This document shows positions 536 to 32,133 of a DNA stretch of 64,000 nucleotides, piece by piece (position 1 is the stretch's first letter; the number at the start of each line of letters is the position of its first letter). Location of the stretch: contig NZ_FONG01000017.1 of the NCBI RefSeq assembly GCF_900112845.1, forward strand, positions 1-64,000, in the 5' to 3' direction. The stretch is from Actinacidiphila alni. GTDB lineage: Bacteria > Actinomycetota > Actinomycetes > Streptomycetales > Streptomycetaceae. Below the pieces are notes generated by a model. The model saw nothing but the letters and a program-made list of their open reading frames with translations, did no database searches and was not told where the DNA came from. The position numbers and the translations under genes were made by a program.

Positions 536-609
536 AGCCGCCTTCGGGATTCGAACCCGAGACCTACGCATTACGAGTGCGTTGCTCTGGCCAACTGAGC
601 TAAGGCGGC
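536..609 (-). tRNA. tRNA-Thr (anticodon CGU)
   Basis: A complete cloverleaf is visible on the minus strand. The acceptor stem is GCCGCCT pairing with AGGCGGC (603-609 and 537-543). The D arm contains AGCTCAGTTGGCCAGAGC. The anticodon stem ACGCA/TGCGT encloses loop CTCGTAA with anticodon CGT. The T arm is TCGGG-TTCGAAT-CCCGA. The 3' CCA is not encoded. It reads ACG threonine codons. Confidence 0.95.
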
Positions 610-11955: not shown

Positions 11956-13653
11956 TCACGGCAGTTCGATCCGCGCGAACAGCGGCGCCGGGCGCGGGAG
12001 TACGCCGTCCGCGTCCGGCGTGCACTGCCGCGCGATCCGGCCCGCCGCGTCCGGGAGGAACGGGGCGAGCTGGTCGGCGAGTTGGCGGCACGCGTCGAGG
12101 AGGACGACGAGGACCACGTCCAGACGTCCGGCGCCGTCCGGGTATCCCGCCACGGCCAGACGTCCCGTCGTGTCCGGGCTTCCGGCCAGGCCCAGGCTCG
12201 CGGCAGCGTGGGCATGTCCGGCGGCGGCCGGGCTTCCGGCAGGGCCCAGGTGCGGGCCGGCGGCGGGCGGCGCGGCCGCTGCCTCCGCCTTTGCCAGGTC
12301 CCAGGGTCGGGTGGACTCGATGCAGCGGTTGGCCTCTTCCAGGATCGTCCAGACGGCCGCCGCGGCGCGGCGGAAGTCGTGGCGGGCGAGGGCGGCGGTG
12401 ACGCGGTCGCCGGCGGTACGGCAGGCGGTCGCGAGCGGGGCCGTATCGGGTGAATCGGGGGCGCCCGTACGGTCGGGGCGGCCGCCGCGGTAGCGGTGAA
12501 TCATCGTCACCACGCGGTGCACCAGATTCCCGAGGCCGCCCGCGAGGTCGGAGTTGGCGCGGGCGATCAGCCGCTCGACGGTGAAGTCCGCGTCGCCGAC
12601 GCGCGGTACGTCGCGCAGCAGCCACCAGCGGACCGCGTCCGTACCGTAAGCGGCGACGAGTTGGGCCGGGTCGACGGCCGAACCAACGCCCGTACCTGCC
12701 GACTTGCTGATCTTGCGGCCGTCAACGGTCAGATAGTCGTGCACGAGCACATCCGTCGGCAGCGGCAGGCCCGCGGACAGCAGCATGGCGGGCCAGTACA
12801 CGGCGTGGAAGCGGACCACCCCTTTACCGACGAGGTGGACGCGGCGCCCCTCCCCCGCCCACCAGCGCTCGTACGCGTCGCCGCCACCGCCCTCCGGGGC
12901 CGACCCGTAACCGAGGGCGGTCACGTAATTGCCGAGCGCGTCCCACCAGACGTAGACGACCTGGTCCGGGTCGTCCGGCACCGGGATGCCCCAGCCGCGG
13001 GCGCGGGCGACCGAGCGCGAGACCGAGAAGTCGCGCAGGCCGCCGTCGATGAGGGCGAGCACTTCGTTGCGGCGGGCGGCCGGTTCGACACGGAGCCGAC
13101 CGCTGGTGATCAGCGCGCGCAGCCGGTCGCCGTACTGCGAGAGCCGGAAGAACCAGTTCTCCTCGGCGACCGGCCGCGGCACGGTGCCGTGCTCGGGACA
13201 GCGCCCGTCGACCAGTTCCTCCGGCGTCCAGAACTGCTCGCAGCCGACGCAGTACAGCCCCTCGTAATGCTTCCGGTACAGGTCGCCGGCCGCCGCGCAC
13301 CGCCGCCACAGCGCCTCCACGCCGGTGCGGTGGCGCGGGTCGCTGCTGGTGCGGATGAAGTCGTCGAAGGAGAGCGCGAGGGGCGCGCGCAGGGCCGCGA
13401 AGGCGGCGGCGTTCCGGTCCACGAACTGCTGGACGGGGACGCCCTCGGCCTCGGCGGCCAGCACGTTCTTCAGCGAATTGTCGTCCGTGCCGGACAGGAA
13501 GCGGACGGGGTGGCCGGCCCGGCGGCGGTGGCGGGCCAGGACGTCTGCCTGGACGAGTTCGAGCGCGAAGCCGAGGTGGGGGCGGGCGTTGACGTACGGG
13601 ATGGTGGTGGTGACGTAGTACGGGAGCTTCGCGGGCGTACGGGCTGCGGTCAT
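11956..13653 (-). CDS. metG: Methionyl-tRNA synthetase
   Basis: The ATG at 13653 follows AAGAGG and gives 565 residues. Class I signatures are clear: the HIGH-like PHLG at 25-28 after YYVTTTIPYVNARPHLG, a zinc-type knob (CVGC...CPEH), and the KISKS loop at 314-318. An anticodon-binding helical domain follows, with NRCIESTRPWDLAK. A low-complexity Ala/Gly/Pro linker of about 50 residues interrupts the C-terminal domain and is unusual. Expression is probably controlled by the Met-codon attenuator directly upstream. Whether this is the only MetRS or a second, inducible copy cannot be told from the window. Confidence 0.92.
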   Translation of the reverse strand: MTAARTPAKLPYYVTTTIPYVNARPHLGFALELVQADVLARHRRRAGHPVRFLSGTDDNSLKNVLAAEAEGVPVQQFVDRNAAAFAALRAPLALSFDDFIRTSSDPRHRTGVEALWRRCAAAGDLYRKHYEGLYCVGCEQFWTPEELVDGRCPEHGTVPRPVAEENWFFRLSQYGDRLRALITSGRLRVEPAARRNEVLALIDGGLRDFSVSRSVARARGWGIPVPDDPDQVVYVWWDALGNYVTALGYGSAPEGGGGDAYERWWAGEGRRVHLVGKGVVRFHAVYWPAMLLSAGLPLPTDVLVHDYLTVDGRKISKSAGTGVGSAVDPAQLVAAYGTDAVRWWLLRDVPRVGDADFTVERLIARANSDLAGGLGNLVHRVVTMIHRYRGGRPDRTGAPDSPDTAPLATACRTAGDRVTAALARHDFRRAAAAVWTILEEANRCIESTRPWDLAKAEAAAAPPAAGPHLGPAGSPAAAGHAHAAASLGLAGSPDTTGRLAVAGYPDGAGRLDVVLVVLLDACRQLADQLAPFLPDAAGRIARQCTPDADGVLPRPAPLFARIELP

Positions 13654-13730
13654 CGGAGCCTCTTCCTTTGCCTTCGGTGATCGGCGAGTGCCGTCGGTGA
13701 TCGGCGAGGGGCGGGGTTCCGGACACAAAA

Positions 13731-13756
13731 ACGAGGCCCCGTTCCCGGGGCCTCGT
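13731..13756 (-). terminator. Attenuator terminator upstream of metG
   Basis: A perfect 11-bp stem (ACGAGGCCCCG / CGGGGCCTCGT, loop of four) is followed on the minus strand by TTTTTGTG. It lies 77 nt before the metG start and downstream of the leader peptide. It is therefore placed to stop transcription before the synthetase gene. Confidence 0.8.
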
Positions 13757-13836
13757 GTGTCGTGTGCGGTGGTCGCACGCGCGCGTCAGTGGCTGCCCCG
13801 GTGGCGGGGCATCATCTGCGGTGCGCGTGTGATCAT
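13745..13836 (-). promoter_or_regulatory. Candidate Met-tRNA-sensing transcription attenuator
   Basis: Three mutually exclusive pairings are visible. Arm 1 TGCCCCG (13805-13811) overlaps the second Met codon of the leader peptide and pairs with arm 2 CGGGGCA (13794-13800). Arm 2, extended to CCGGGGC (13795-13801), can instead pair over 7 bp with GCCCCGG (13745-13751), the core of the terminator's 5' arm. Ribosome stalling at the two consecutive Met codons would mask arm 1, favour the antiterminator and let metG be transcribed. This is the classical trp-type logic inferred for methionine; structure and regulation are untested. Confidence 0.7.
13786..13836 (-). CDS. Methionine leader peptide of metG
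   Basis: A 16-codon frame encodes MITRAPQMMPRHRGSH and stops with TGA 132 nt before metG. It contains adjacent Met codons at positions 8-9. The promoter box TACCCT (13843-13848) ends 6 nt before the ATG, so transcription should begin at the A of ATG and the peptide would be translated leaderless, as is common for actinobacterial leader peptides. Its position before an overlapping hairpin set and a U-tract terminator is the reason for calling it a regulatory peptide rather than a functional product. Confidence 0.7.
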   Translation of the reverse strand: MITRAPQMMPRHRGSH

Positions 13837-13842
13837 GTGCCG

Positions 13843-13848
13843 AGGGTA
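13843..13848 (-). promoter_or_regulatory. -10 box of the metG leader transcript
   Basis: TACCCT on the minus strand fits TANNNT and ends six bases before the leader-peptide ATG, predicting transcription from that A. No clear -35 hexamer is seen. Confidence 0.5.
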
Positions 13849-31549: not shown

Positions 31550-31574
31550 TCGGGCGCACTCCTTTCCTTCCTTC

Positions 31575-31725
31575 TCGCCTACCGGGTTAGCTGACGGGTT
31601 CGGAGCAGGAAGGTCTCCTACGGGCCTGACGGCTGCCCGATTCACCCCATGGATCCCCTCCCGTACGCCTGACTGCGACGTGCGAAAGGTCGGGTCCCCG
31701 GTTCCCGCGGACGGGATTCGGCAAG
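31575..31725 (-). ncRNA. ydaO/yuaA (cyclic di-AMP) riboswitch
   Basis: The minus strand carries the conserved family segments in order: GCGGGAACCGGGGACCCG, ATCCATGGGGTGAATC, then CCGAACCCGTCAGCTAACC ending GGTAGGCGAG. CTTGCC and GGCGAG close the outer P1 stem. It lies 26 bp before the M23 peptidase GTG. In Streptomyces these switches turn off resuscitation and lytic genes when c-di-AMP is high. The ends given are those of the P1 stem. Confidence 0.9.
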
Positions 31726-32133
31726 CGCGCGGTGCCGCCTCTGTGGCGGTGGTGACGACCGCGCTGCGTTATCGAACGTTAATAGAGCCGGAGGCGTTTT
31801 CCAAGCCGAATCCAAGAGTTGACGTCGGGAACCAAACGGTCACGGCATGCGTAGTACGGGTAAAACCGGCACCGGATGTGGCCGGGCGGTGATGTGAGTG
31901 TGTGTCAGTTGTTATCCGCCGTTATCCACAGGGGGACGGCGTGACTACGGACGGTCAGCGTACGGTGGCGGTACGGGGCGGCGGCGCCACCGGTGTGGAC
32001 CTCTGCCAATTCGTGAATCCCTTGGCAGGTCACGTAGCCCGGCCGCACCATGAGCAGGCCCGCATTTCTGTCATGCACTCGTCCGCTCCAACTCGCCCCA
32101 CCCCGCCCGATCCACGACCACGAGGGAGCCTTC
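31726..32133. other. Divergent interval between M23 peptidase and amidase
   Basis: No gene is seen. The left part must hold the riboswitch promoter. It is unusually AT-rich near CGTTATCGAACGTTAATAG (31767-31785). At 31912-31930 two DnaA-box-like 9-mers, TTATCCGCC and TTATCCACA, lie in tandem. The right part is the 5' leader of the amidase. Confidence 0.5.

What the first reader, a model, noticed from the sequence alone, without database searches (positions are those of the whole stretch)
13731..13848. Methionine-codon attenuator controlling a methionyl-tRNA synthetase
Directly seen: a 16-residue leader (MITRAPQMMPRHRGSH) with adjacent Met codons, a -10 box placing transcription at its ATG, a 7-bp hairpin beginning inside the second Met codon, a 7-bp alternative pairing with the terminator's 5' arm, and an 11-bp terminator followed by five Ts, all 77-195 nt before metG. 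This is complete trp-type attenuation logic for sensing Met-tRNA charging. Leader-peptide attenuators are known in actinobacteria for Trp, branched-chain and Cys genes; I am not aware of a described MetRS case. A nearby Met supply signal would make synthetase expression self-correcting.
Basis: partly seen in the sequence, partly recalled or inferred. Interest (0 to 1): 0.82.

Follow-up and report, generated by a model that had tools for sequence, protein, structure and literature searches.

The report
Methionine-sensing switch on spare methionyl-tRNA synthetase
In front of a second, back-up copy of the enzyme that loads methionine onto its tRNA, this bacterium carries a tiny gene with two adjacent methionine codons and switching RNA hairpins, almost certainly a sensor that turns the back-up enzyme on when loaded Met-tRNA runs short; the same device precedes the gene's relatives across many actinobacteria and has counterparts on Rhizobium plasmids, and I found no earlier description of it.

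Summary
The 16-residue leader MITRAPQMMPRHRGSH starts 6 nt after a -10 box (leaderless) and precedes an auxiliary MetRS: the genome encodes another MetRS, about 30% identical, with no such leader. Across 66 related leaders from many actinobacterial families the -10 box sits 6-7 nt before the leader start in 64 (background 3/389), all 64 keep the frame at six different spacings, and 66/66 keep at least one Met codon. A covariance model finds the element only directly upstream of this gene (12/12 strong hits in 297 genomes). Met-rich leaders also precede extra metG genes on Rhizobiaceae plasmids.

Corrections: the gene is a back-up MetRS. The 'terminator' has a T-run of four or more in only 9 of 66 relatives. 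The family-wide output appears to be a hairpin hiding the metG ribosome-binding site (strands 5:6), released when a ribosome stalled on Met codons frees strand 2. The window carries both outputs. ON-state wiring is unresolved, and covariation is mostly not significant under a phylogeny-aware null. No MetRS attenuator was found in the readable literature; Lopatovskaya 2010 could not be read.

The parts
13843..13848 (-). -10 box TACCCT
   Evidence: Direct reading; TANNNT 6-7 nt before the leader start in 64/66 relatives against 3/389 background start codons.
13786..13836 (-). Leaderless leader ORF MITRAPQMMPRHRGSH (16 aa plus TGA)
   Evidence: Direct reading; frame conserved 64/64 at six spacings.
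13810..13815 (-). Adjacent regulatory Met codons ATG ATG
   Evidence: At least one Met codon kept in 66/66, both in 52/66.
13805..13811 (-). Strand 1 (TGCCCCG), 5' arm of hairpin 1:2, covered by a ribosome stalled at the Met codons
   Evidence: 1:2 stem present in 66/66; cognate duplex -11.4 vs -6.5 shuffled.
13794..13800 (-). Strand 2 (CGGGGCA), the switching strand (pairs with 1, 3 or 5)
   Evidence: Begins 15 nt after the first base of the first Met codon here, mean 15.2 across 66.
13746..13756 (-). Strand 3 (ACGAGGCCCCG), 5' arm of the terminator-like hairpin
   Evidence: 3:4 helix, 4 of 10 aligned pairs invariant.
13731..13741 (-). Strand 4 (CGGGGCCTCGT), 3' arm of the terminator-like hairpin
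13727..13731 (-). T-run (five Ts, the first in the stem): termination signal in the window lineage
   Evidence: Direct reading; T-run >=4 in only 9/66 relatives, longest here.
13712..13722 (-). Strand 5 (CCGGAACCCCG), complementary to strands 2, 4 and 6
   Evidence: Conserved GGAGCCCC-type block in the alignment; 5:6 cognate -13.5 vs swapped -11.5 vs shuffled -9.4.
13654..13660 (-). Strand 6 (GGCTCCG), between the Shine-Dalgarno sequence and the metG ATG; pairs with strand 5 (CGGA/TCCG plus CC/GG around one A-C mismatch)
   Evidence: Present in the predicted fold of the window leader; 5:6 supported across relatives.
13659..13668 (-). Shine-Dalgarno region AAGGAAGAGG of metG
   Evidence: Direct reading.
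13669..13708 (-). Tandem 20-nt repeat between strands 5 and 6, not seen in the relatives aligned
11956..13653 (-). Auxiliary methionyl-tRNA synthetase gene (565 aa)
   Evidence: TIGR00398 metG 380 bits over the 336 cutoff; second, ~30% identical MetRS on G000:C13.

Best explanation
A ribosome-mediated attenuator that senses charged elongator Met-tRNA and controls an auxiliary MetRS. Transcription starts at the leader ATG (inferred from the -10 spacing). A 70S ribosome translates the leaderless 16-codon ORF. With Met-tRNA plentiful, the ribosome passes the two Met codons and ends at the TGA; hairpin 1:2 forms, 3:4 forms (in the window with a T-run, so transcription can stop there), and strand 5 pairs with strand 6 to hide the metG ribosome-binding site: OFF. 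With charged Met-tRNA scarce, the ribosome stalls with a Met codon in the A site, its footprint covers strand 1 but not strand 2 (15 nt away), and strand 2 pairs downstream (with 5 by equilibrium folding; with 3, freeing 4 to take 5, is the alternative), so strand 6 is free and/or 3:4 is prevented: ON. The back-up synthetase is then made only when the resident MetRS cannot keep tRNA-Met charged. Shown from sequence: ORF, Met codons, frame and promoter conservation, complementarity, exclusive linkage to this gene. Inferred: stalling, switching, direction of response, physiological trigger.
For: Frame and Met-codon conservation with variable spacing, and -10 spacing. Leader with Met codons in at least 95 of 118 unique related metG loci: 66 canonical, 15 Micromonospora-type, 14 Frankia-type. 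Strand 2 starts 13-17 nt from the first Met codon, as expected for a ribosome edge about 12-13 nt past the A-site codon (general knowledge). Complementarity above composition for all helices; cognate better than species-swapped for 1:2 (z -8.6), 3:4 (z -8.4) and 5:6 (z -6.9); 0/500 shuffles reach the covariation score of the OFF structure. Folding with strand 1 masked raises 2:5 from 0.29 to 0.71 (0.55 when strand 5 is shuffled). Covariance model: 12/12 strong hits directly upstream of this gene in 297 genomes, one hit in the own genome. Controls: no MM leader upstream of 30 other MetRS loci (some starts approximate) nor in the Mycobacterium metG upstream regions inspected (same MetRS type). 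Different sequence solutions with MMM leaders on Rhizobiaceae plasmids.
Against: No expression data. Cores of strands 2-5 are nearly invariant, so the ON pairings cannot be tested by covariation; under a phylogeny-aware null only one pair (columns 181-245 in 5:6) reaches p about 0.02, and 134-187 in 4:5 about 0.07. Equilibrium RBS openness rises only from 0.43 to 0.49 on masking. In the window, strand 5 carries a change that weakens 5:6 and a 40-nt repeat separates 5 from 6. Met limitation may also lower the fMet-tRNA needed to start the leader.
Confidence: 0.9

Rival explanations
1. Purely trp-type transcription attenuation: 2:3 antiterminator versus 3:4 terminator decides, and the RBS helix is incidental.
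For: 11-bp GC-rich hairpin with a T5 run in the window. Rhizobiaceae, Reyranella (L082), L087 and Chloroflexi (L077) versions have hairpins with T-runs.
Against: Only 9/66 actinobacterial relatives have a T-run >=4; 5:6 is conserved and complementary; folding gives little 2:3 even when strand 1 is masked (0.08).
Confidence: 0.22
2. Purely translational attenuation with 3:4 only a spacer, also in the window.
For: 5:6 helix across the family and in the window fold; 3:4 stays formed in both states by folding (0.86/0.82).
Against: The window lineage has a real T-run and a weakened 5:6; GC-rich actinobacterial hairpins may terminate without long T-runs (general knowledge).
Confidence: 0.35
3. Arrest peptide: the nascent peptide MMPRxRGC itself stalls the ribosome, perhaps in response to a ligand.
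For: Peptide motif MMPRxRGC recurs in many relatives.
Against: The motif changes whenever the hairpin shifts (MMRPxRGC in Streptacidiphilus, MMAP-stop in Nonomuraea, MMxMxSGLxRxS in Frankia), and only Met codons plus hairpin remain common.
Confidence: 0.05
4. A ligand riboswitch or T-box rather than a translated sensor.
For: Structured 5' leader of a MetRS gene.
Against: No Rfam match here nor in tested relatives; frame and start spacing are kept, which a riboswitch would not need.
Confidence: 0.02
5. Fortuitous small ORF plus an ordinary hairpin without regulatory role.
For: GC-rich DNA forms hairpins easily; the terminator scan alone is near chance.
Against: Conservation across many families and exclusive linkage to this gene.
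Confidence: 0.01

Closest known systems
Auxiliary TrpRS1 of Streptomyces coelicolor, ribosome-mediated transcriptional attenuation (Vecchione and Sello 2010, J Bacteriol 192:3565, doi 10.1128/JB.00290-10; title read in a reference list, text not held)
   Same: Auxiliary actinobacterial aminoacyl-tRNA synthetase controlled by ribosome-mediated attenuation, that is, by a leader peptide with codons for its own amino acid.
   Different: Tryptophan there, methionine here; by title the known case is transcriptional, whereas most relatives here lack a T-run and carry an RBS-hiding helix; antibiotic resistance of this MetRS is untested.
Leader peptides before trpS, leuS, alaS, thrS and metNIQ in Streptomyces lividans (PMC8079986) and before trpS/leuS in Seliverstov 2005 (PMC1262725)
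   Same: Leaderless leader peptides upstream of synthetase genes in Streptomyces, often without a U-tract; one proposed Met leader (metL before metNIQ).
   Different: Neither lists a MetRS leader in the text read; metL (MSTTSDRTPATEATTTPGARCMCRRMCAF) has scattered Met codons and precedes a transporter.
Polycysteine leaderless ORFs of mycobacteria (Canestrari 2020, doi 10.1111/mmi.14498; title and a short description read in PMC13236596)
   Same: Leaderless short ORF with runs of one codon; described there as translation attenuation.
   Different: Cysteine genes, not a synthetase.
Translation attenuators of erm/cat type (from general knowledge)
   Same: A stalled ribosome on a leader ORF frees a hidden ribosome-binding site.
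   Different: Those respond to antibiotic-induced arrest, not to charging of a tRNA.

Membership tests
Ribosome-mediated (leader-peptide) attenuator | Short translated ORF with clustered codons of the controlled pathway's amino acid | tested here: met
   Frame 64/64, at least one Met codon 66/66. Translation itself not measured.
Ribosome-mediated (leader-peptide) attenuator | Regulatory codons placed so that a stalled ribosome covers strand 1 but not strand 2 | tested here: met
   Strand 2 starts 13-17 nt from the first Met codon, mean 15.2.
Ribosome-mediated (leader-peptide) attenuator | Mutually exclusive RNA structures | tested here: met
   Complementarity above shuffles for all helices; the ON wiring is not resolved.
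Ribosome-mediated (leader-peptide) attenuator | Downstream gene concerns the same amino acid | tested here: met
   MetRS, TIGR00398 above cutoff.
Ribosome-mediated (leader-peptide) attenuator | Expression responds to charging of the cognate tRNA | not testable with these tools
   Needs a reporter or RNA experiment.
trp-type transcription attenuator | Regulated intrinsic terminator with U-tract | tested here: inconclusive
   Terminator present in the window, but T-run >=4 in only 9/66 relatives and 2:3 is weak by folding.
Translational attenuator | Alternative helix hides the ribosome-binding site of the controlled gene | tested here: met
   5:6 cognate -13.5 vs -11.5 swapped vs -9.4 shuffled; present in the window fold, weakened by one mismatch.
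T-box or SAM/other riboswitch | Match to a curated Rfam family | tested here: not met
   Only c-di-AMP and tRNA in the window.
Arrest peptide | Peptide sequence conserved independently of the RNA fold | tested here: not met
   Residues after MM change with the hairpin register in Streptacidiphilus, Nonomuraea and Frankia-type leaders.

The most novel reading that the evidence does not exclude
Auxiliary MetRS genes with Met-codon leaders form a mobile emergency cassette (chromosomes of many actinobacteria, Streptomyces and Rhizobiaceae plasmids) that is kept silent until the resident MetRS fails, for instance under natural MetRS inhibitors, using a sensor for the very amino acid that also starts every protein. 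The leader code evolved more than once, with a chain of up to six alternating RNA strands linking the stalled ribosome to the distant ribosome-binding site.
Probability: 0.3. Interest if true: 0.78.

Novelty: new variant of a known kind. Interest (0 to 1): 0.64.

Why it matters
No Met-tRNA-sensing leader-peptide attenuator of a MetRS was found in the readable literature. Its wide conservation suggests back-up MetRS genes are emergency genes, which points to natural selection by agents that block MetRS or starve cells of methionine; that bears on MetRS as a drug target. It also poses a testable puzzle: how a leaderless leader that needs fMet-tRNA to start can report shortage of Met-tRNA. The covariance model gives a ready way to find such genes.

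Tried and rejected
Linker helix between the 2-3 and 4-5 linkers: long in some species but no better than species-swapped partners overall (cognate -10.1, swapped -10.8), dropped. Wiring by covariation for 2:3, 4:5 and 2:5: cores too invariant. Out-of-group tests with automatic strand finding: 5:6 supported in Micromonospora-type (mean z -1.8, 12/15), not in Frankia-type or Rhizobiaceae, where strand assignment was crude; 2:5 not supported in any of the three. Weak covariance-model hits (22-27 bits) away from metG: treated as noise after one inspection. Rfam: nothing. Proteobacterial order scan with the Reyranella MetRS: returned mostly 43-46% MetRS; my motif did not locate their starts, so their upstreams were not read. 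One family search failed on the server and was repeated. Papers: ten searches, no MetRS attenuator; Vecchione and Sello 2010 and Canestrari 2020 are not held, and Lopatovskaya 2010 was seen only as a citation.

Full report
What is there. On the - strand a -10 box TACCCT (13848-13843) lies 6 nt before the ATG of a 16-codon ORF, MITRAPQMMPRHRGSH (13836-13786), so the transcript should be leaderless. Two Met codons (13815-13810) are followed by a 7-bp hairpin that begins in the second Met codon, then by an 11-bp GC hairpin with a T-run, then by metG (ATG 13653). The leader folds far better than shuffles (z -5.8).

What the gene is. The 565-aa product is a MetRS (TIGR00398). The genome has a second MetRS of 577 aa, about 30% identical, on another contig; its upstream region has no Met leader. 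I call the window gene auxiliary and the other housekeeping because close relatives of the latter (82-92% identical) occur in all seven other genomes of the window's genus that were tested and in several other genomes of the family, including G049, which had no match to the window-type MetRS, whereas only 8 of 34 genomes of the genus carry the window type.

Conservation. At least 95 carry a Met leader: 66 of the canonical kind, 15 Micromonospora-type (MMRPxxGxxxVR) and 14 Frankia-type (MMxMxSGLxRxS). In the canonical set, 64/66 have TANNNT 6-7 nt before the start codon, against 3/389 background start codons; taking the start from the -10 box alone, the distance to the Met motif is a multiple of three in 64/64, at six different lengths; all 66 keep at least one Met codon and 52 keep both. 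The Mycobacterium metG upstream regions inspected, same MetRS type at about 43%, show no Met leader.

Structure. The alignment shows six conserved complementary strands, two more than reported: strand 5 (GGAGCCCC-type block) and strand 6, between the Shine-Dalgarno sequence and the metG start. 1:2, 3:4 and 5:6 make one state; 2:3, 4:5 and 2:5 are alternatives. All pair better than shuffled partners, and 1:2, 3:4 and 5:6 pair better with their own partner than with another species' partner (z -8.6, -8.4, -6.9). No shuffle of 500 reached the covariation score of the OFF structure; 16 of 500 reached that of the ON structure. These controls ignore relatedness. A simulation along the MetRS tree leaves one pair at p about 0.02 and one at about 0.07, the others not significant, largely because most core pairs do not vary. 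Examples of matched 5:6 pairs read from the alignment: GGAGCC/GGTTCC, GGAGCC/GGCTCC, GGTCCC/GGGACC, CAGGC/GCCTG, GGAAGC/GCTTCC.

Mechanism. Strand 2 begins 15 nt from the first Met codon (mean 15.2), so a ribosome waiting for Met-tRNA would cover strand 1 and leave strand 2 free. Folding the leader with strand 1 masked, before strand 6 is made, raises 2:5 pairing from 0.29 to 0.71 while 3:4 stays formed; shuffling strand 5 still gives 0.55, so part of this is composition. Pairing with 5 would keep the ribosome-binding site open. Only 9/66 relatives have a T-run of four or more after 3:4, the window having the longest. I conclude that RBS hiding is the general output and that the window lineage has added or kept a terminator; its 5:6 helix has one mismatch and a 40-nt tandem repeat in its loop. 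Which ON wiring is used is open.

Exclusivity and spread. A covariance model built from 42 sequences was run on 297 genomes of the class: 12 strong hits, all directly upstream of the window-type metG, and one hit in the own genome. Plasmid-borne window-type metG occur in Streptomyces, Embleya and Rhizobiaceae; the Streptomyces and Embleya copies have canonical leaders and six of six Rhizobiaceae copies read have MMM leaders, most followed by a hairpin with a T-run. Reyranella (L082), L087 and a Chloroflexi MAG (L077) also have Met-rich leaders with terminator-like hairpins.

Known or new. S. lividans leaders precede alaS, thrS, trpS, leuS, trpE, leuA, ilvB and metNIQ, not metG; the abstract of Seliverstov 2005 lists Trp, Cys and Leu/Ilv cases and ileS T-boxes. 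The closest system is the auxiliary TrpRS1 of S. coelicolor, known to me here by title only. Lopatovskaya 2010 covers synthetase operons and could not be read, so the novelty claim is conditional. I rate it a new variant of ribosome-mediated attenuation: new amino acid, RBS-hiding output in most members, wide conservation. The sensing step and its physiological trigger remain inferred.

Noticed in passing
window 31562-31733 (-): c-di-AMP riboswitch (RF00379, 88 bits).
   Followed up: no
window 536-609 (-): tRNA gene (RF00005).
   Followed up: no
window 13669-13708: Tandem 20-nt repeat (95%) between strands 5 and 6, absent from the aligned relatives.
   Followed up: partly
L243-L248: Rhizobiaceae plasmids carry a window-type metG with MMM leaders (e.g. 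MNRSLANATMMMPRS); a strand after the terminator looks complementary to it.
   Followed up: partly
L092-L103, L209, L210: A second architecture in Frankia-type loci: Met codons inside a CCGGATG...CATCCGG hairpin, apparently on the only MetRS of most of these genomes.
   Followed up: partly
L075 upstream of metG: GGGTGGTACCACG, a T-box-like core before a Thermomicrobiales MetRS; no Rfam match at gathering threshold.
   Followed up: partly
canonical leaders, linker between strands 2 and 3: A GGACG motif recurs in many families; its role is unknown.
   Followed up: no
plasmids search: 188 Escherichia plasmid records match the window MetRS weakly (<60%); not examined.
   Followed up: no
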